Assembly (NCBI GenBank): GCA_003697085.1
Contig: RFFU01000083.1
Location: forward strand, 1 to 15,009
Direction of reading: 5' to 3'
Length of the DNA stretch: 15,009 bases
Source of the DNA: Candidatus Hydrogenedentota bacterium
Lineage (GTDB): Bacteria > UBA8481 > J006
Shown one piece after another: positions 5,210-15,009 of the stretch (the first letter of the stretch is position 1; every line of letters starts with the position of its first letter). The position numbers and the translations under genes are program-made. The notes beneath the pieces are model-generated. The model was not told where the DNA came from and ran no database searches. It saw only the letters and a program-made list of their open reading frames with translations.

Positions 5210-5238
5210 TTGACGAGGCTCTTCATCGCTTCTAGCCT
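5210..5238 (+). promoter_or_regulatory. Sigma-70-like promoter ahead of the lipoprotein/hydrolase pair
   Basis: TTGACG (5210-5215) and TAGCCT (5233-5238) are separated by 17 bases, placing transcription start near 5245. The -10 box is weak (3 of 6), but the arrangement matches the promoter at 7908 and the operator lies just downstream. The implied 5' leader is about 113 bases. Confidence 0.55.
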
Positions 5239-5250
5239 CTTCGGGAGCCG

Positions 5251-5264
5251 TGTAACCGGTTTCA
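5251..5264. promoter_or_regulatory. LacI-type operator 1
   Basis: TGTAACCGGTTTCA has a perfect AACCGGTT core with a central CpG, the usual form for LacI-family operators. It begins 41 bp after the first base of the -35 box and lies just past the expected transcription start, a classic repressor position. It is the exact reverse complement of the site at 7949-7962. Confidence 0.8.
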
Positions 5265-5357
5265 TCGCGTAAAGCAGATGGGAGCGCTTTTCGGCAACAG
5301 GTGGGACCGGCCGGAAGAGAAGGAAGCGCGCCGTGATCGAGGAAAGGAGCCGTACCA

Positions 5358-5999
5358 TTGCCTTCATTGGATCAATCCTATTTCCGGAGCAAAATCCCAA
5401 CGATCGCGCTTCTGCTTTCTTTGACATTCGGATTCCTCGGCATCGAGGCGTGCGGTGGAGGCGGGGAGGGAAAGAAAGAGACGCCGCCGGTGCTGGTCCT
5501 CGCGGATTTCGATTCCGCCCGCCCGCCGGCCAACATCGGGGGGGCCTATTCGGTTTGGATGGTCGATGCCGAGGACACGGCTCAGTGGTGCGCACTTGGA
5601 TATTCCAGCGACTACGCCTCCGGAGGAAAAGGCTACGCTCTCCGGCTCGATTATGACGTCGATGACGTAAAACCGGCCTACAACGGCTTCTGGCTCAAAT
5701 TGCAAAACCTCGACGCTTCCGAGTACGATGCCCTCTCGATGAAACTCGCCGGTGATCCCCGGGGGTGCACGAAAAAGATCATCGTCGAACTTAAGAATCC
5801 CTTTCAGACCGGAAAATACACGGTGGTGGGGATCGACACCTACGTTCGAGAATTCCGCATCCCGCTCGGAAAATTCAAGGGCCTGACGGATTTCCGATCG
5901 CTGACCGAAATGACGATCGTCTTCTCGGACATCGGCGTGACCGCCAAGACCGGAACTCTCTACGTGGATGACATTCGTCTCTTGCGGACGAAAGGCTGA
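5358..5999 (+). CDS. Lipoprotein with CIA30/CBM11-like domain
   Basis: This is a 213-residue protein starting at TTG 5358, chosen because AGGAG (5345-5349) lies 8 bases upstream and the start gives an intact signal sequence. The lipobox GIEAC puts the lipidated Cys at residue 32, followed by a Gly-rich spacer, so the mature protein is membrane-anchored in the periplasm or at the surface. The rest is one beta-sandwich domain of the CIA30/CBM11-like, galactose-binding superfamily: VLADFDS near its start, then KKIIVELKNPF, REFRIPLGKFKGL, and TGTLYVDDIRLL at the end. Such domains bind glycans or stabilise complexes; no catalytic residues are expected. The same domain recurs in the genes at 8089 and 8969. 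It is followed after 5 bases by the hydrolase gene, so the two are almost surely co-transcribed and controlled by operator 1. Confidence 0.87.
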   Translation: MPSLDQSYFRSKIPTIALLLSLTFGFLGIEACGGGGEGKKETPPVLVLADFDSARPPANIGGAYSVWMVDAEDTAQWCALGYSSDYASGGKGYALRLDYDVDDVKPAYNGFWLKLQNLDASEYDALSMKLAGDPRGCTKKIIVELKNPFQTGKYTVVGIDTYVREFRIPLGKFKGLTDFRSLTEMTIVFSDIGVTAKTGTLYVDDIRLLRTKG

Positions 6000-6004
6000 A
6001 AAGC

Positions 6005-7951
6005 GTGCGACGTCGTTCCGTCGTCATCTTCCTCGTGGTATTGCTCCTGGGAATAGGGTTCGCTCTTTGGAAGATGCGTCGAGGCGAGGAATCCGACATC
6101 CGTGAGGTGACGTTGGACCGGATCGAGCAGGCCGCGTTCCTTTATTTCTGGGAGAATGCCGATCCGAGAACCGGCTTGATCCTCGACAACCAGAACAATT
6201 TCCTCGCGAGCGATTTGAGTTATTCTCCCTCTTCCGTCGCGGCGGTTGGATTCGGGCTGAGCGCGATCGTGGTAGGGGTGGAACGCGGTTGGGTCTCTCG
6301 CGCCGACGCCAAGGACCGCGTCCTGACGACACTGAAAACCTTTCGCGATAAATGCGAAAATGTTCATGGATTCTATTATCATTTTCTCGATCCGAAGACG
6401 GCAAAGCGGACCTGGCACTCGGAACTGTCGTCCGTTGATTCCGTTCTCTTTTTGGCGGGGGCCTTGACGGCCGGGAGTTACTTCGGCGGAGAGGTCGAAT
6501 CGCTGGCGAAAAAACTCTACGAACGGGTCGAGTGGCCCTGGATGCTCAACGGCGGCAAGACCTTTGCAATGGGCTGGAAACCCGAGGGCGGATTTCTCTC
6601 GACGCGCTGGGAGCATTACGACGAATCTTCTCTGCTCTATATTCTGGCGATCGGCTCGCCCACGCATCCGATTCCCGCCGAGTCGTGGAAGGCGGTCCGG
6701 CGGGAAATCGGGGAATACAAGGGCCACGTCTGCCTCGTCTCCGGCCCTCTCTTCACGCATCAATACAGCCATCTCTGGATCGATTTTCGCGGGATCACGG
6801 ATGGATTCGCCGATTATTGGAAATCCTCGATCGAGGCGACGAAGGCCAACCGGCAGTTCTGCCTGGACAACGCCTCGTCGTACAAGACCTATGCCGCCGG
6901 CCTGTGGGGATTGACCGCTTGCGATGCTCCCAGCGGGTACCGTGCCTACGGGGCTCCCCCCGGACGGGCCGTTCACGACGGAACCGTCGCTCCGACCGGC
7001 CCCATCGGTTCCTACCAATTCACCCCGGACCTCTCCTGGGAAGCGATCCAGGCTTTTCTTCGGGTCGACGGCCTTTGGGGGCGTTATGGATTCGCTGACG
7101 CCGTCAACCTCGACGTCGTCAATGTTCAAGGAAAGCCCTGGATTTCCACGAACGCGATCGGCATCGACAAAGGGGCTGAAATTCTCTCCATAGAAAACGG
7201 GCGGACGGAACTGATCTGGAAACTCTTCTCCTCACGTGCGGAGGTGAAACGCGGCCTGGAGCGAGCCGGTTTCCGGCAGGGAACCATGGCAATGAAACCG
7301 ACGGTTTCGGAAGCCCCCACGGTCTTCCGAACGAAAGCCGACCGTCCCACGACCACGATTCCGCGGGCGGAGAAATCGCCTTCGATCGATGGGAATCCGG
7401 CGGACCAAGCGTGGGCGAAGGTGTCGCCCCTCTTTCTGGACGAGGTGACGCGGGAGCGCGGCGCCGTATCCGGTCCGAAGGACCTCTCCTCCTCCTTCCG
7501 ATTCCTCTGGGATGAGAAAGCCCTGTACGTCCTTGCCGAGATCACGGACAACGAGATCGTGACGGAGCATGCGGGGAAGGATATCTACCAGGACGATCTC
7601 ATCGAAATTTACATCGATCCTCAGAACAACCTGCTCGATTGGGGGAATTCCCGCGACTTCCAGATCGGCTTCGCCCCGATCGGGGAACGCGGCGAAGCGT
7701 GGGCCTGGTTCCAGAACCGTTCCGGCCGGGAAGCGGAAATCGAATACGTGGTTCTCAAGAAACAAGGGGGATACACCGTGGAAGCAGCGATCCCATGGAC
7801 CTTTCTCGAAACGGTTCCCGAACGGGGAAAGAGGATCGGGTTCTCCTTCGCCGTCCATGACAAGGATACCGATGAAACTCCGGACGCAAAATTTAATTGG
7901 TTTTTCCTTGACCCGGGGATTTATTTGGGTATAGGTTTACTGGGCGGTTGA
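6005..7951 (+). CDS. Membrane-anchored glycoamylase-like hydrolase with CBM9-like C-terminus
   Basis: The 648-residue protein starts at GTG 6005 with AAAGG 9 bases upstream. An N-terminal signal anchor (about 5-23, flanked by RRR and RR) holds it in the inner membrane. Residues about 35-420 form an alpha/alpha-barrel of the glycoamylase-like family (PF10091), with WHSELSSVDSVLFLAG (about 136-151), HQYSHLWIDFRG (about 251-262), and LWGLTACDAPSGYRAYG (about 299-315) as its signatures. That family includes GH144-type beta-1,2-glucanases and parts of cyclic beta-1,2-glucan synthases, so a beta-glucan substrate is likely, though not shown. A linker leads to a CBM9/DOMON-like domain (about 456-648: SPSIDGNPADQAW, then DDLIEIYIDPQNN). 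Its stop codon shares bases with operator 2, and its 3' end contains the promoter for the next gene. It forms an operon with the lipoprotein 5 bases upstream. Confidence 0.88.
   Translation: MRRRSVVIFLVVLLLGIGFALWKMRRGEESDIREVTLDRIEQAAFLYFWENADPRTGLILDNQNNFLASDLSYSPSSVAAVGFGLSAIVVGVERGWVSRADAKDRVLTTLKTFRDKCENVHGFYYHFLDPKTAKRTWHSELSSVDSVLFLAGALTAGSYFGGEVESLAKKLYERVEWPWMLNGGKTFAMGWKPEGGFLSTRWEHYDESSLLYILAIGSPTHPIPAESWKAVRREIGEYKGHVCLVSGPLFTHQYSHLWIDFRGITDGFADYWKSSIEATKANRQFCLDNASSYKTYAAGLWGLTACDAPSGYRAYGAPPGRAVHDGTVAPTGPIGSYQFTPDLSWEAIQAFLRVDGLWGRYGFADAVNLDVVNVQGKPWISTNAIGIDKGAEILSIENGRTELIWKLFSSRAEVKRGLERAGFRQGTMAMKPTVSEAPTVFRTKADRPTTTIPRAEKSPSIDGNPADQAWAKVSPLFLDEVTRERGAVSGPKDLSSSFRFLWDEKALYVLAEITDNEIVTEHAGKDIYQDDLIEIYIDPQNNLLDWGNSRDFQIGFAPIGERGEAWAWFQNRSGREAEIEYVVLKKQGGYTVEAAIPWTFLETVPERGKRIGFSFAVHDKDTDETPDAKFNWFFLDPGIYLGIGLLGG
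7908..7936 (+). promoter_or_regulatory. Promoter inside the 3' end of the hydrolase gene
   Basis: TTGACC (7908-7913) is followed by TATAGG (7930-7935, spacer 16) or ATAGGT (7931-7936, spacer 17). Transcription would start near 7942, giving the next lipoprotein a leader of about 147 bases. The -35 to operator distance is identical to that at 5210. Confidence 0.6.
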
Positions 7952-7962
7952 AACCGGTTACA
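7949..7962. promoter_or_regulatory. LacI-type operator 2
   Basis: TGAAACCGGTTACA is the exact reverse complement of operator 1. Its first three bases are the TGA stop codon of the hydrolase. It begins 41 bp after the first base of the -35 box, so repression by blocking the polymerase at the start site is expected. Confidence 0.8.
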
Positions 7963-8008
7963 CGGCATTTTAAACGAGAGGCGCGGCTCGTACGCGGCCC
8001 CTTGACCG

Positions 8009-8968: not shown

Positions 8969-10573
8969 ATGACACTTCCGGGCGGCAAGAAATTCGCGCC
9001 ACGTGACAAGCGGGCGCGGAGACTCGTGACGATGCAGGTCTCTTTCGGTCTTCGGACCGAGCAGGATACGATCTTCGAAGGGGAATCGACGGGACTTAAC
9101 GAACACGGGCTGGCGGGCCGCGTGAATCTCGTCTCCGGGAGACTCCCCTCGAATCTCGCCGGAAAACGTGTCTCCGTTCGCTTGGACCTTCCCAAGGAGA
9201 CCGGATTCCGGAGGATCGAGGGGGAGGTATTGCGTTTCACGACATCCTGGGTTCCCGGATACCGTTACTTCCTCGCCGTCAAATTCGACCGGATCAGCCG
9301 CGAGGATGTCGAATACCTCAAACGTTTCATCTCTTGGCAGGAGGGGCGGTATTTCGAGGAGGAAAAGCCTCCGAGGCAATGGTACGTTCACCGGACCGTG
9401 GAGAATTCCACCTACGGACCCCTTACCGCCAAGGAAGTGGAATCCGCCGTGCGGGCTGGAGCGTTGACCGAGCAGGACTGGATCTGGTCTCCCTTCGACG
9501 GTGAGTGGATTCCGTTCACGAAGGAAATCCTTTCCGCCGAAGAAGCGATTCCTCTTGCTGTGGAGAGTGCAAGCGGCGGGAGCGGTCTGACGCCGGAAGT
9601 CACGAAAGCGAGCGGCTCGACGGCGGCTGACCAACGGAAGACGACCGACGGGAAAGCCTCCGCCGGAAGGCCGACGGCCTCGAGGCTTCTCGAACGCCGC
9701 CCTCCGTCTTCCGCTGGAAGGTGGCTTCGCGCTTTCACCGTCTCAGTCCTTCTCCTCTTCGCCGCCCTCGGCGCGGGAATCGCTTATTGGACCGGTTGGC
9801 TCGATCCGTCGGAACCCGCTCAAGAATATCGCCGGGCCCTTGAATCCCACGACTCCGGCCGTTACTACCTCGGCATCCGTTTCATGGACGACCTCTGCCG
9901 CCGCTTTCCCAAGAACCGTTTCGCCCGCCGGGATCTGTTGACCCGCTATCTAGCCGAATCGGAGTCCCTCATCGACCGATCAATCGCCAATACGATGTTC
10001 GAGGAACCCAAGCGCGACAACATCGGCGTTCCTCCGCCCGATCGTTTCGTTCTCTGCGATTTCAACCGCGACGGCTATACCGCGCGCGAAATCGCGCCGC
10101 CGATCTTCGCTTGGAAGAGCGATCCTTTCGACAAGGAAACCCGCATCGACATTGAATACGATCCCTCGGACAAAATCGGTTCCGCCGGATATTCACTCAA
10201 GATCGATTACCATCTCCGAAGGGAGCCCGGTATCTACGCCGGACTCTGGGTTCGTTTCCGCGGGCCTGATCGACCGTCCCTCGATCTCTCCGACTATTCC
10301 TACCTTCTCTTCCGGATCAAGGGAGACGGAAAGGCGCGCGGTTACACGCGGTCGCTTCAGGTGGAACTGCGTAACGAAAGAGAGATCGGCATTGTTACCG
10401 TCAACAACATTCCGAACGAGTGGACACAAGTAAAGATTCCCTTTGCTCACTTCAAGGGTATCACGCAGTGGGATCGGCTTCGTTCCCTCCTTTTCGTCCT
10501 GGATTCCAGCCGCGTGACGGATCGGGACGGTGTCTTGCTTATCGACGAAATAGCCGCGGTAAAGGCACGATAA
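8969..10573 (+). CDS. PilZ-like/GYF_2/transmembrane/CIA30 multidomain protein
   Basis: The 534-residue protein starts at ATG 8969, a few bases after GGGAGAG. Residues about 12-122 look like a PilZ domain: an Arg-rich start (RDKRARR, 12-18), TGLNEHGLAG (41-50) at the position of the usual DxSxxG motif, then beta strands ending in FLAVKFDRIS. Key c-di-GMP contacts are altered (Gly42 and Asn44 instead of Asp and Ser), so binding is doubtful. Residues 137-183 (WYVHRTVENSTYGPLTAKEV, then DWIWSPFDGEW) fit a GYF_2 module. A disordered linker (about 190-250) leads to one membrane helix (about 254-274). Outside come a short helical region (about 285-345, possibly TPR-like) and a CIA30/CBM11-like domain (about 358-534), with LQVELRNEREIG, VKIPFAHFKGI and GVLLIDEI. 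The topology suggests a link between a periplasmic glycan or protein partner and a cytoplasmic signal. It is probably co-expressed with the 8089 gene, though the 163-base gap could hide a promoter. Confidence 0.83.
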   Translation: MTLPGGKKFAPRDKRARRLVTMQVSFGLRTEQDTIFEGESTGLNEHGLAGRVNLVSGRLPSNLAGKRVSVRLDLPKETGFRRIEGEVLRFTTSWVPGYRYFLAVKFDRISREDVEYLKRFISWQEGRYFEEEKPPRQWYVHRTVENSTYGPLTAKEVESAVRAGALTEQDWIWSPFDGEWIPFTKEILSAEEAIPLAVESASGGSGLTPEVTKASGSTAADQRKTTDGKASAGRPTASRLLERRPPSSAGRWLRAFTVSVLLLFAALGAGIAYWTGWLDPSEPAQEYRRALESHDSGRYYLGIRFMDDLCRRFPKNRFARRDLLTRYLAESESLIDRSIANTMFEEPKRDNIGVPPPDRFVLCDFNRDGYTAREIAPPIFAWKSDPFDKETRIDIEYDPSDKIGSAGYSLKIDYHLRREPGIYAGLWVRFRGPDRPSLDLSDYSYLLFRIKGDGKARGYTRSLQVELRNEREIGIVTVNNIPNEWTQVKIPFAHFKGITQWDRLRSLLFVLDSSRVTDRDGVLLIDEIAAVKAR

Positions 10574-10911
10574 CGACAGGAATAGCTCTTTCGTTCGCCC
10601 TTCTTCGTTTTTCACTTTCCGAGGTAGAACGGCACGTTGGTAACCGTCAACGGTAAGGAGAGAAGCCTCGTCCTTGCCCTGTTTCTTGCCCCCAACCCTG
10701 CCTTCTTCCTTTTCCCCTTTCCCTTTTGCCTTTCTCATTTTCCGTGTTCTCCGTGTGCTCCGTGATTTCTTCTCTTCCGTGTCATTCCGTGTCTTCCGTG
10801 GTTTCTTCTCTTCCGTGCTATTCCGTGTCTTCCTCGGGGTATTCCGTGGACTTTTCGGACGCGTTGTTCTATCGTTGTTTGGAGTGGTTTCACCAAGGAG
10901 TTCAAGAGCCG
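10574..10911. other. Intergenic repeat block A
   Basis: This 338-base gap has no convincing gene. It contains a small inverted repeat (ACCGT 10643-10647, ACGGT 10650-10654), a pyrimidine-rich stretch (about 10674-10740) including CCTTTTGCCTT and TTTCTCATTTT, and then a run of CCGTG-centred repeats to about 10850. The open frame that runs through it into the DNA methyltransferase is repeat-derived and compositionally unlike protein (Ser/Val/Phe/Cys repeats). Confidence 0.75.
10766..10833. repeat. Two 32-bp direct repeats, period 36
   Basis: The segment at 10766-10797 is repeated at 10802-10833 with only two differences (TC versus CT in the middle). Both begin TTTCTTCTCTTCCGTG and end CCGTGTCTTCC. 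Shorter CCGTG units precede it from 10741. This is the most regular part of repeat block A. Confidence 0.85.
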
Positions 10912-11949
10912 ATGAACCAGATCGTCTTCGCTGATAATCTCGCCTTCCTCACGACCCTTCCGGAGGGCTCGGTCAACCTCGTCTACATCGATCCTCCGTT
11001 CAATACCGGCAAGACCCGGCGTTACCGTCGGCTCGAAACGCGGCGTTCCGGAAAAGCGGGGAATCGCATCGGCTTTCTTGGAAAGTCCTATGCCACGACG
11101 GAACGAAGTGTCACAACCTATTCCGACATTCACTCCGATTATCTCGGCTCGCTCGAACCGCGCCTCCGGGAGGCTCACCGGGTTCTGGCGGAGGACGGCT
11201 CCCTTTTCTTCCACATCGATTATCGGGAGGCCCACTACTGCAAGATTCTTCTCGACGAAATCTTCGGGCGTGAATCCTTCATGAACGAGATCATCTGGGC
11301 GTATGACTACGGCGCGCGGAGTCGAAAACGCTGGTCGCCAAAGCATGACACGATCTTCTGGTATGCCAAATCCCCGGTCCGCTATACCTTCAACTTCGAG
11401 GAGATGGATCGGATTCCGTATATGGCCCCCGGATTGGTCACGCCCGAAAAGAGAAAACGCGGAAAGACGCCGACCGACGTCTGGTGGCACACCATCGTCC
11501 CGACGAACGGAAAGGAACGCACCGGATACGCGACACAGAAACCGCTGGGAATCCTCAAACGGATCGTCAAGGTTCATTCGCGGCCGGAAGAGACTGTCCT
11601 CGACTTCTACGCGGGAAGCGGTACGACGGGAGAAGCGGCGGCTCGTCTGGGACGGCGTTTCATCCTCGTCGATAACAATCCGCAGGCGATCGAGGTTATG
11701 TGTCACCGCTTGCGCTTTGCTTCGCCGGTTCTCGTGAACCTTCATAATCGACCGGTCGGAAAAGAAAAGGGCAATCTTCCCCTCTTTCGGGAATGGAACC
11801 AGAGTCTTCCTCCTTTTCCGCCCCCAAACGCGGCAAATTCCGCGTCCCCCCCTAAAACCGCGAGTACCAGGAAGAAACGGAAGTCTCCCTCGGTGACGCG
11901 GAGAAAAGAATCCGAAAATCGGGAAGTTCGGGAAGAACGCGATGCCTGA
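10912..11949 (+). CDS. Beta-class DNA adenine-N6 methyltransferase, apparently orphan
   Basis: This is a 345-residue protein from ATG 10912, with AAGGAG (10895-10900) 11 bases upstream; upstream in-frame sequence is repeat and is excluded. YIDPPFNTG (25-33) is catalytic motif IV, and DPPF points to adenine-N6 methylation. FYAGSGTTGEAA (232-243) is the SAM-binding motif I. The order IV before I defines the beta class, as in type III Mod subunits and many solitary methylases. A basic insert (about 34-60) and the central GYATQKP (205-211), a conserved part of the fold, are visible. The C-terminal 55 residues are Pro/Ser then Lys/Arg-rich and look disordered. No restriction enzyme lies nearby, so it is probably a solitary epigenetic methylase or a remnant of a system. 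It overlaps the solute-binding gene by 8 bases. Recognition site unknown. Confidence 0.88.
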   Translation: MNQIVFADNLAFLTTLPEGSVNLVYIDPPFNTGKTRRYRRLETRRSGKAGNRIGFLGKSYATTERSVTTYSDIHSDYLGSLEPRLREAHRVLAEDGSLFFHIDYREAHYCKILLDEIFGRESFMNEIIWAYDYGARSRKRWSPKHDTIFWYAKSPVRYTFNFEEMDRIPYMAPGLVTPEKRKRGKTPTDVWWHTIVPTNGKERTGYATQKPLGILKRIVKVHSRPEETVLDFYAGSGTTGEAAARLGRRFILVDNNPQAIEVMCHRLRFASPVLVNLHNRPVGKEKGNLPLFREWNQSLPPFPPPNAANSASPPKTASTRKKRKSPSVTRRKESENREVREERDA

Positions 11950-13228: not shown

Positions 13229-13336
13229 ACACCGGGCTTGGCCGGGGCACACATCAAGAACCGCGGGACACGCGGAGAAAATGAGAAAACGGAATACAGG
13301 GAACGAAAGAAGAGAGGAGATTGTTCAACGCCGGAA

Positions 13337-13356
13337 TCCTGCAGGTTCCCGCAGGA
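13337..13356. terminator. Hairpin in repeat block B
   Basis: TCCTGC (13337-13342) and GCAGGA (13351-13356) form a 6-bp stem with an 8-base loop, about 110 bases after the solute-binding gene. There is no T-run, so a terminator role is uncertain; it could instead belong to the repeat element. Confidence 0.3.
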
Positions 13357-13742
13357 AAGGATTGGCCACAGAGACCCAGGGATCACAGAGGATGAAATGA
13401 AAAAATGAAGAGACCCGAGAAAACAGGAGGATTTCCCCATACGCTTTTTTCTTGCCTTTTTCCGTACAGGGAAAGCCCTCTTTTCAGGTCTTACGCTCTC
13501 AGAAAACGACGTTCACCGATCTCTTCTTTTCTTCTTTCTCCGTGACTTCTCCGTGTGCTCTGTGTTCTCTGTGGTTTCCTTGTGTGCGCCTTGCAGGAGT
13601 CCAGTTCAACGTTTGGAATTCCGCACTGAACATTGGAAAACGAAAAATGAATACCGGGAAACGAGAAACAAGGAACGATAAATCGCCGCCGAGATCCGTC
13701 TTCTACGTCTCCGCAGCCATTCTTTTTTTAACTGGTTTTTCT

Positions 13743-13772
13743 TTGTGAACGGCATGGCGGTTCGTGTAATAT
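13743..13772 (+). promoter_or_regulatory. Promoter of the LacI-type gene
   Basis: TTGTGA (13743-13748) and TAATAT (13767-13772) are separated by 18 bases. Transcription would start at about 13779, at or next to the ATG at 13780. No ribosome-binding site precedes that ATG, so a leaderless message is likely. Confidence 0.55.
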
Positions 13773-13779
13773 TCGGCAT

Positions 13780-14817
13780 ATGAAATCGGTTTCACGTTCA
13801 AAGAGAGCCACCATTTATGATGTCGCCGCTGCGGCGCGTGTCTCGACCGCGACTGTTTCGAGATACCTGCGCGGGTACGATCGGATCACAGCGGAAAAGA
13901 AAAAGCGGATTCAGCAGGCCATTGCGGCACTCGATTTCGAACCTCATCCGATCGCACGCTCCTTGGCTCTTCCCATCAAACGAACCCTCGGTCTTCTGAT
14001 TATGCGAGGGTCCCGCGCTTATGCCGACCTTTTTCTGGCCGAAATCCTCTCGGGCGTGACCCGAGCCGCTTCCGCACTCGAACTCTCCTTGATGATCTCC
14101 GTTCCTTCCGCTTCGTCCGAGATCCCTTCCGTAGTGGAACGGATCCGCCGTGTCGTCGATGGAAGCCTCCTCCTCGATGTCTCTCTCGGCGATCAGACCG
14201 TGCGGAAATTGGCGGCCGGCGGCCACCCGATTCTTCTGGTCAATCAGGTCCATTCCAGAATTCCCTCCGTCTCGATAGACAATTATCTCGGAGGGAAGAC
14301 GGCCGCCGAGTATCTCGTGAAACTGGGTCATACGAGGATCGCCTGTTTGGCCGGAGACACGTCCATCAGCCGGCAGCGCCTCGATGGTTACCTTTCCGGC
14401 CTCGCCGAGGGGGGACTGAGGCCGGCGGAAGTAGTCGGCTGTGCCTTCGACAGGGAGAAGGCCCGCCGGGCTTTTCGAAAGATCATCAAACGCCGAAAAC
14501 CTCCGACCGCATTGCTCGTCGCCAGTGACTGGATGGCGGTGGGAGTCCTGGAAGAAGCCCGCGCGCTCGGCGTCGAAATCCCCCGCGACCTCAGCGTGAT
14601 TGGTTTCGATGACGCCATCATCGCAGAGACAACGGTCCCGGCGCTGACGACCATCCGCCAACCGCTGGAACGCCTGGGAGCCGAGGCGGTCGAAACACTC
14701 TGGGGATTCGTGACGAAAACAGAAAAAACGCCGGGATCCTCGAGAAAACGATTCAGCGAAAAATCTCTGGCTCCGAAACTGGTCGTTCGACAATCGACCG
14801 CACCGCCACAGTTGTAA
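13780..14817 (+). CDS. LacI/GalR-family transcriptional repressor
   Basis: The 345-residue protein has the full family layout. The helix-turn-helix is at residues 10-31 (TIYDVAAAARVSTATVSRYL), the usual N-terminal position, which supports the ATG at 13780. The hinge helix (PIARSLA, 57-63) has a Leu at the place that wedges into the central CpG of operators. Then comes a periplasmic-binding-protein-like sensor domain with GHPILLVNQV, a YLVKLGHTRIACLAGD strand, and DLSVIGFDDAIIAE near the C-terminus. It should bind a sugar or sugar phosphate and repress sugar-use genes. A site resembling the operators at 5251 and 7949 lies across its own start codon, implying autoregulation. It is separated from the other genes by repeat blocks, but it is the only regulator visible and the natural candidate for those sites. 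Inducer unknown. Confidence 0.93.
   Translation: MKSVSRSKRATIYDVAAAARVSTATVSRYLRGYDRITAEKKKRIQQAIAALDFEPHPIARSLALPIKRTLGLLIMRGSRAYADLFLAEILSGVTRAASALELSLMISVPSASSEIPSVVERIRRVVDGSLLLDVSLGDQTVRKLAAGGHPILLVNQVHSRIPSVSIDNYLGGKTAAEYLVKLGHTRIACLAGDTSISRQRLDGYLSGLAEGGLRPAEVVGCAFDREKARRAFRKIIKRRKPPTALLVASDWMAVGVLEEARALGVEIPRDLSVIGFDDAIIAETTVPALTTIRQPLERLGAEAVETLWGFVTKTEKTPGSSRKRFSEKSLAPKLVVRQSTAPPQL
13781..13794. promoter_or_regulatory. LacI-type operator 3, across the regulator's start codon
   Basis: TGAAATCGGTTTCA has matching TGAAA and TTTCA arms and a central CpG. Read in the same sense, it differs from TGAAACCGGTTACA (operator 2) at two positions. It begins with the TG of the ATG and lies about 2-15 bases after the expected transcription start, a position suited to autorepression. 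Confidence 0.65.
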
Positions 14818-14837: not shown

Positions 14838-15009
14838 TCCTGCGGCACGGAATGCCCCACGCTCTAATCCGCTTCTCCCTCGCCCCGTTTCCCTTTTTCC
14901 TTTTGCCTTCCTACTCCACCTTCTCACGCAACGGTCTCGGCACTCTCCGCTCCGCTCGCGCATCCTTTTTCTTTTCTCCCTCTCTGTGTCTCTGTGTCTC
15001 TGTGGCCAC
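14838..15009. repeat. Intergenic repeat block C (runs off the window)
   Basis: This pyrimidine-rich sequence (about 14870-14970) shares the exact 11-mer CCTTTTGCCTT (14899-14909) with block A (10722-10732). It ends in three CTCTGTG-type units to the window edge. GTCTCTGTGGCC at 14996-15007 is the exact reverse complement of 13364-13375 in block B. No gene is visible. Confidence 0.75.

What the first reader, a model, noticed from the sequence alone, without database searches (positions are those of the whole stretch)
5210..7962. Two promoter-operator units with identical geometry control glycan-binding genes
TGTAACCGGTTTCA (5251-5264) and its exact reverse complement (7949-7962) each begin 41 bp after the first base of a TTGAC-type -35 box and sit just past the expected start site. 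One precedes the lipoprotein/hydrolase pair, the other the second lipoprotein. An exact 14-bp match at matched distance is very unlikely by chance. It defines a small LacI regulon for a surface glycan system.
Basis: partly seen in the sequence, partly recalled or inferred. Interest (0 to 1): 0.75.

Follow-up and report, generated by a model that had tools for sequence, protein, structure and literature searches.

The report
LacI regulon for β-1,2-glucan use
Two matching DNA switches in this stretch belong to a small set of repressor binding sites, scattered over an uncultured bacterium's genome, that appear to turn on genes for finding, cutting up, importing and consuming the sugar polymer β-1,2-glucan; the kind of switch is ordinary, but it assigns a pathway and a regulator to genes that had none.

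Summary
TGTAACCGGTTTCA (5251-5264) and its reverse complement (7949-7962) each start 41 nt after a TTGAC, and the exact match is really 18 bp. Exact hits to TGWAACCGGTTWCA are very rare: 4 in the 3.2 Mb genome. Three lie upstream of genes: the two here and one before the genome's only GH35 gene. The fourth is inside a prepilin gene and is probably chance. One-mismatch sites lie at the start codon of the window's own LacI gene and before an ABC-transporter/GH94 operon. The regulated proteins point to one substrate, β-1,2-glucan: a GH144-type endo-β-1,2-glucanase, CBM11-fold lipoproteins, a Lin1841-like sophorooligosaccharide-binding ABC system, a GH94 closest to the cyclic-β-1,2-glucan-synthase phosphorylase domain, and a GH35 with all seven IaSGT residues. 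The same parts form one cluster in Ignavibacterium album. In the only held relative, LacI-type boxes precede two PF10091 genes and a CBM11/GH94/GH35 divergon. So the LacI regulon is supported, but it is a β-1,2-glucan catabolic regulon rather than a generic surface glycan system. "Identical geometry" holds for these two sites only, and the promoters are weak, unproven matches. It is a new member of a known kind.

The parts
5210..5215 (+). candidate -35 box TTGACG; possible -10 TAGCCT at 5233-5238 (weak)
   Evidence: sequence; not called by the sigma-70 scan
5247..5264 (-). operator 1: TGTAACCGGTTTCA (5251-5264) within an 18-bp exact match to operator 2
5358..5999 (+). lipoprotein 1, CBM11 fold, TTG start preceded by AAGGAG
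   Evidence: no Pfam hit; AlphaFold model pLDDT 81 matches CtCBM11 1v0a, Z 18.1, rmsd 2.0, 147 aligned; BLASTP to lipoprotein 2 E 2e-15
6005..7951 (+). membrane-anchored GH144-type endo-beta-1,2-glucanase (PF10091) with C-terminal CBM9
   Evidence: Pfam; best PDB matches XcSGL/XCC2207 8xul and CpSGL 5gzh; catalytic acids aligned at E207 and D145; only PF10091 gene in the genome
7908..7935 (+). candidate promoter inside the GH144 gene: TTGACC-16-TATAGG
   Evidence: sequence; not called by the sigma-70 scan
7949..7966 (+). operator 2: TGAAACCGGTTACA (7949-7962); its first three bases are the GH144 stop codon
8089..8805 (+). lipoprotein 2, CBM11 (GTG start after GGAGG; lipobox LVGC)
   Evidence: Pfam PF03425 above gathering cut-off; only PF03425 hit in the genome
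8969..10573 (+). PilZ + GYF_2 + CBM11/CIA30-like protein, probably downstream in the operon
   Evidence: similarity to lipoprotein 2; a PilZ/GYF protein follows the GH144-lipoprotein pair in G001 C168
11942..13228 (+). extracellular solute-binding protein, best PDB matches 3uor and Lin1841
13743..13772 (+). candidate lacI promoter TTGTGA-18-TAATAT
   Evidence: sequence
13781..13794 (+). operator 3: TGAAATCGGTTTCA (one mismatch), overlapping the LacI start codon; candidate autoregulatory site
13780..14817 (+). LacI-family repressor, predicted cognate regulator
   Evidence: Pfam LacI HTH + Peripla_BP_3; closest PDB relative CcpA; one of three LacI-HTH genes in the genome

Best explanation
The two repeats are operators of a local LacI-family repressor encoded at 13780-14817. 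Without inducer a dimer sits at or just past the promoters and blocks transcription; at 7949 it could also block read-through from the upstream operon. When beta-1,2-glucan breakdown products (probably sophorooligosaccharides; inferred) enter the cell, the repressor lets go. That turns on, at dispersed loci, a beta-1,2-glucan pathway. CBM11-fold lipoproteins and a membrane-anchored GH144 endo-beta-1,2-glucanase capture and cut the polymer outside the cytoplasm. A Lin1841-like ABC transporter imports the oligosaccharides. A CGS-type GH94 phosphorylase and a GH35 beta-1,2-glucosyltransferase process them inside. The repressor also controls itself. Shown here: the sites, their rarity, their positions, and the sequence identity of the genes. 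Inferred: binding, effector, repression, transcription starts and enzyme activities.
For: Few exact hits genome-wide, and the non-coding ones are all upstream of glycan genes. LacI-type boxes TGNAANCGNTTNCA: 13 against 2 for the reversed control in this genome, 17 against 2 in the relative. Boxes precede the genome's only PF10091, only GH35 and only PF03425 genes, and one of its three GH94 genes; the other two GH94 loci have none upstream. Independent substrate evidence: GH144 PDB matches and catalytic acids; C91 SBP best match Lin1841, E 8e-86; [quoted passage not shown] C92 GH35 best match IaSGT, E 3e-75, with Y52, E102, N175, E176, N275, E343 and Y378 all conserved. Relative G001: boxes 30 and 77 nt upstream of two PF10091 genes, and one between a CBM11 lipoprotein and a GH94-GH35-ATPase operon. 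The same parts are clustered in I. album (PMC8861115), and lin1838 LacI was proposed to regulate the Listeria cluster (PMC3960220).
Against: No binding, expression or growth data. Promoter matches are weak and were not called by the scan. The C91 site differs at one central base (TGAAACCGCTTACA) and could belong to another LacI protein. In G001 the syntenic GH144 gene on C168 has no recognisable box upstream, and PF10091 on C198 has none. The G001 LacI with best similarity is only 39% identical. The C72:6061 box precedes a GYF/NHL gene pair with no obvious link to glucan.
Confidence: 0.8

Rival explanations
1. The boxes are real LacI-type operators but are bound by another LacI paralogue (C106 or C136) or by a CcpA-like global regulator; the window's LacI gene is only a neighbour.
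For: The box resembles a CcpA cre-like consensus and the nearest PDB relative is CcpA. The genome has two other LacI-HTH genes.
Against: A box sits at the window LacI gene's own start. TGWAA-class boxes are few and cluster on one pathway, not as a global regulon would. The box just after the C136 LacI gene is of the TGCAA class, and so is the one some 9 kb from the C106 LacI gene, which suggests a different specificity.
Confidence: 0.12
2. The two repeats are a chance or duplication-derived inverted repeat with no regulatory role.
For: The 18-bp identity extends beyond the palindrome on one side, which could reflect copying. One exact genome hit is probably coincidental, inside prepilin GFTLIELL codons.
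Against: Rarity against shuffles and base composition, upstream placement, independent loci C92 and C91 with unrelated flanks, and boxes before the same gene types in the relative.
Confidence: 0.04
3. The regulon is real but serves another beta-glucan (mixed-linkage, laminarin or cellodextrin).
For: CtCBM11, the nearest fold for lipoprotein 1, was solved with a beta-1,3-1,4-linked tetrasaccharide. Pfam names are generic, and GH94 includes cellobiose and laminaribiose phosphorylases.
Against: Four unrelated proteins each have a beta-1,2-specific best match in the PDB, with conserved IaSGT residues including Asn175.
Confidence: 0.1

Closest known systems
Ignavibacterium album IaSGT/GH144 gene cluster (IALB_1177-1187; PMC8861115)
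   Different: One cluster in I. album; here the parts are dispersed over at least three contigs and joined by an operator. The paper contains no occurrence of 'regulator'. Here CBM11 lipoproteins and a CBM9 on the GH144 are added.
Listeria innocua lin1838-1843 beta-1,2-glucan cluster (PMC3960220)
   Same: LacI gene (lin1838) proposed to regulate a GH94 phosphorylase and a sophorooligosaccharide ABC transporter
   Different: Listeria uses SOGP and a GH3 beta-glucosidase. In the PMC3960220 passage regulation is only suggested for the neighbouring LacI gene; here operators are identified.
Local LacI-family regulons (Ravcheev et al. 2014, PMC4052901)
   Same: Even palindrome with central CG, site near the start codon, small sugar regulon, autoregulation
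   Different: That paper contains no occurrence of 'glucan'.

Membership tests
LacI-family local sugar regulon | LacI HTH plus periplasmic-binding-protein-like effector domain | tested here: met
   PF00356 and PF13377 above cut-off
LacI-family local sugar regulon | Even palindromic operator with central CG | tested here: met
   TGWAACCGGTTWCA; rule from PMC4052901
LacI-family local sugar regulon | Sites few, near starts of carbohydrate genes, with a site at the regulator's own gene | tested here: met
   exceptions: one C72 hit coding, one C72 hit before an unrelated gene
LacI-family local sugar regulon | Effector-dependent DNA binding | not testable with these tools
   needs protein
GH144 endo-beta-1,2-glucanase | Sequence similarity to XcSGL/CpSGL over the catalytic domain with acids equivalent to CpSGL E211 and E142 | tested here: met
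   E207 and D145; residue roles from PMC12102758
GH144 endo-beta-1,2-glucanase | Hydrolysis of beta-1,2-glucan | not testable with these tools
   needs assay
GH35 beta-1,2-glucosyltransferase (IaSGT) | Y52, E102, N175, E176, N275, E343, Y378 | tested here: met
   all seven aligned identically in the C92 protein; R349 not conserved, as in many homologues
Sophorooligosaccharide-binding protein (Lin1841) | Close sequence relationship | tested here: met
   C91 protein best match 5ysb, E 8e-86; the window SBP is much weaker, E 9e-33
CBM11 | CBM11 fold or profile | tested here: met
   lipoprotein 2 by Pfam; lipoprotein 1 by fold only

The most novel reading that the evidence does not exclude
This would be the first LacI regulon for beta-1,2-glucan catabolism defined at the operator level, with lineage-specific operators before GH144 genes in unrelated phyla (TGWAACCGGTTWCA here, GCGCAATCGATTGCGC in Acidobacteriota), and the CBM11-like lipoproteins would be a new family of beta-1,2-glucan-binding surface proteins.
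Probability: 0.4. Interest if true: 0.5.

Novelty: new member of a known kind. Interest (0 to 1): 0.36.

Why it matters
The operator ties genes that a homology search would call 'glucoamylase', 'β-galactosidase', 'cellobiose phosphorylase' and 'unknown lipoprotein' into one pathway with a definite substrate in an uncultured lineage, and gives a motif that can be scanned. It also flags CBM11-like lipoproteins as candidate β-1,2-glucan binders.

Tried and rejected
The exact box at C72:3647 was rejected as a regulatory site: it lies inside prepilin GFTLIELL codons. C72:6061 precedes a GYF/NHL gene pair and was kept only as unexplained. A sigma-70 scan gave no support for either window promoter. 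A DNA-looping role for the two sites was considered; it is unlikely at 2.7 kb with a PurR/CcpA-sized LacI protein (inference from length, not tested). Most GH144 loci of other phyla lack the TGNAANCGNTTNCA box, so the motif itself is lineage-specific.

Full report
Observation. The window carries TGTAACCGGTTTCA at 5251-5264 and TGAAACCGGTTACA at 7949-7962. Each begins 41 nt after the first base of a TTGAC, at 5210 and 7908. The exact inverted match is 18 bp, TGAAACCGGTTACACGGC, at 5247-5264 (-) and 7949-7966 (+). No exact TGWAACCGGTTWCA occurred in 300 dinucleotide shuffles of the window, and looser LacI-type boxes averaged 0.007 per shuffle against 3 observed. Base composition predicts about 0.03 exact hits in the genome; there are 4.

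Promoters. At 7908-7935 TTGACC-16-TATAGG is a fair sigma-70 match. At 5210 only TAGCCT lies at a usable distance. A standard scan called neither. The shared 41-nt spacing is unlikely by chance but was noticed after the fact, and the other members of the set do not share it. At C91 the box lies 52 nt after TTGACG, at C92 it overlaps a TTGAAA-17-TATAAG promoter-like sequence, and at lacI it lies 38 nt after TTGTGA. All these positions suit a repressor.

Genome-wide sites. The window is the whole of contig C118 of a 3.2 Mb, 145-contig genome. The exact hits are the two window sites, C92:2061 and C72:3647. C72:3647 lies inside the GFTLIELL codons of a prepilin gene and is probably chance. C92:2061 lies upstream of a GH35 gene. 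One-mismatch boxes include 13781, overlapping the LacI start codon, and C91:7353, upstream of a solute-binding protein/permease, permease, GH94 and MalK-type ATPase operon. General LacI boxes number 13 against 2 for the reversed pattern. Six of the 13 are of a TGCAA class; one follows the C136 LacI gene directly and one is about 9 kb from the C106 LacI gene. The TGWAA class is therefore best assigned to the window's LacI gene, one of only three LacI-HTH genes in the genome.

What the regulon does. Window ORF 6005-7951 is PF10091 plus CBM9. Its best PDB matches are XcSGL (XCC2207) and CpSGL, the GH144 endo-β-1,2-glucanases, with acids aligned at E207 and D145 (PMC12102758). The C91 binding protein is closest to Lin1841, which binds sophorooligosaccharides. 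The C91 GH94 is closest to the GH94 domain of cyclic β-1,2-glucan synthase. The C92 GH35 is closest to the β-1,2-glucosyltransferase IaSGT and has all seven subsite -1 and catalytic residues (PMC8861115). The genome has one PF10091 gene, one GH35 gene, one PF03425 gene and three GH94 genes. The box precedes the first three and one of the three GH94 genes; the other two GH94 loci have no box upstream. Lipoprotein 1 has no Pfam hit, but its AlphaFold model matches CtCBM11 (Z 18.1, rmsd 2.0 over 147 residues), and it is related to lipoprotein 2, a PF03425 member.

Conservation. Only one relative of the same order is held, G001. Its contig C168 matches PEWQ01000103.1, Candidatus Hydrogenedentes bacterium CG07_land_8_20_14_0_80_42_17, in length and in carrying the GH144 gene. 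There, TGTAAGCGGTTGCA lies 30 nt upstream of one PF10091 gene, TGTAAGCGATTACA 77 nt upstream of another, and TGTAAGCGGTTACA lies between a CBM11 lipoprotein and a GH94-GH35-ATPase operon. The G001 cluster on C168 repeats the window's order, GH144, lipoprotein, PilZ/GYF protein, but without a recognisable box. More distantly, Omnitrophota clusters combine GH144, a binding protein and GH94, two of them with CBM11-like proteins, and an Elusimicrobia cluster combines GH144 with CBM11-like lipoproteins and GH35. Many Acidobacteriota GH144 loci have a LacI gene nearby, and in four of them a perfect palindrome GCGCAATCGATTGCGC precedes GH144. No baseline for LacI proximity was computed.

Mechanism. 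Most likely a local LacI repressor, released by a β-1,2-gluco-oligosaccharide, controls capture (lipoproteins), cutting (GH144), import (ABC) and processing (GH94, GH35), and itself. Sites, rarity, positions and gene identities are shown. Binding, effector, repression and enzyme activities are inferred.

Comparison with what is known. The I. album cluster holds the same enzymes and transporter (PMC8861115). A LacI gene beside the Listeria β-1,2-glucan cluster was already suggested as its regulator (PMC3960220). The LacI-regulon survey PMC4052901 contains no occurrence of 'glucan'. This is a new member of a known kind, with the operator level as the added element.

Noticed in passing
7949-7951 and 13780-13783: Operator 2 begins with the GH144 stop codon TGA, and operator 3 overlaps the LacI start codon; with TAATAT at 13767-13772 and no Shine-Dalgarno, the lacI transcript may be leaderless.
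   Followed up: partly
10912-11949: An N6/N4 DNA methyltransferase (PF01555) sits between the PilZ/GYF/CBM11 protein and the solute-binding protein.
   Followed up: no
10640-10870, 13260-13720, 14900-15009: Intergenic stretches rich in repeated 'ttccgtgtcttccgtgg' / 'ctctgtgtctctgtgg' text, with similar text elsewhere in this genome and in G001 C1.
   Followed up: no
L036 (C106:108413), L038 (C110:46078), L040 (C113:27296), L030 (C47:13222), C129:7225, C136:17252: A second class of LacI-type boxes, TGCAANCGNTTNCA, before other genes; C129 encodes a LacI-like effector domain for which no HTH was found by Pfam.
   Followed up: partly
L089, L090, L091, L092: Perfect 16-bp palindrome GCGCAATCGATTGCGC upstream of GH144 in four Acidobacteriota loci, each with a LacI gene within a few kb.
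   Followed up: partly
8969-10573 and L058:1066-2355: A PilZ + GYF_2 protein follows the GH144-lipoprotein pair in both genomes but has a CBM11-like C-terminus in one and TPRs in the other.
   Followed up: partly
model of 5358-5999: The lipoprotein 1 fold also matches residues 21-201 of the Parabacteroides beta-1,2-glucanase 5z06 (Z 13.1, rmsd 3.1, 155 aligned).
   Followed up: no
L052:6061: TGTAAGCGGTTTCA upstream of a GYF/NHL gene pair on C72, the one non-coding TGWAA-class box with no visible link to glucan.
   Followed up: partly
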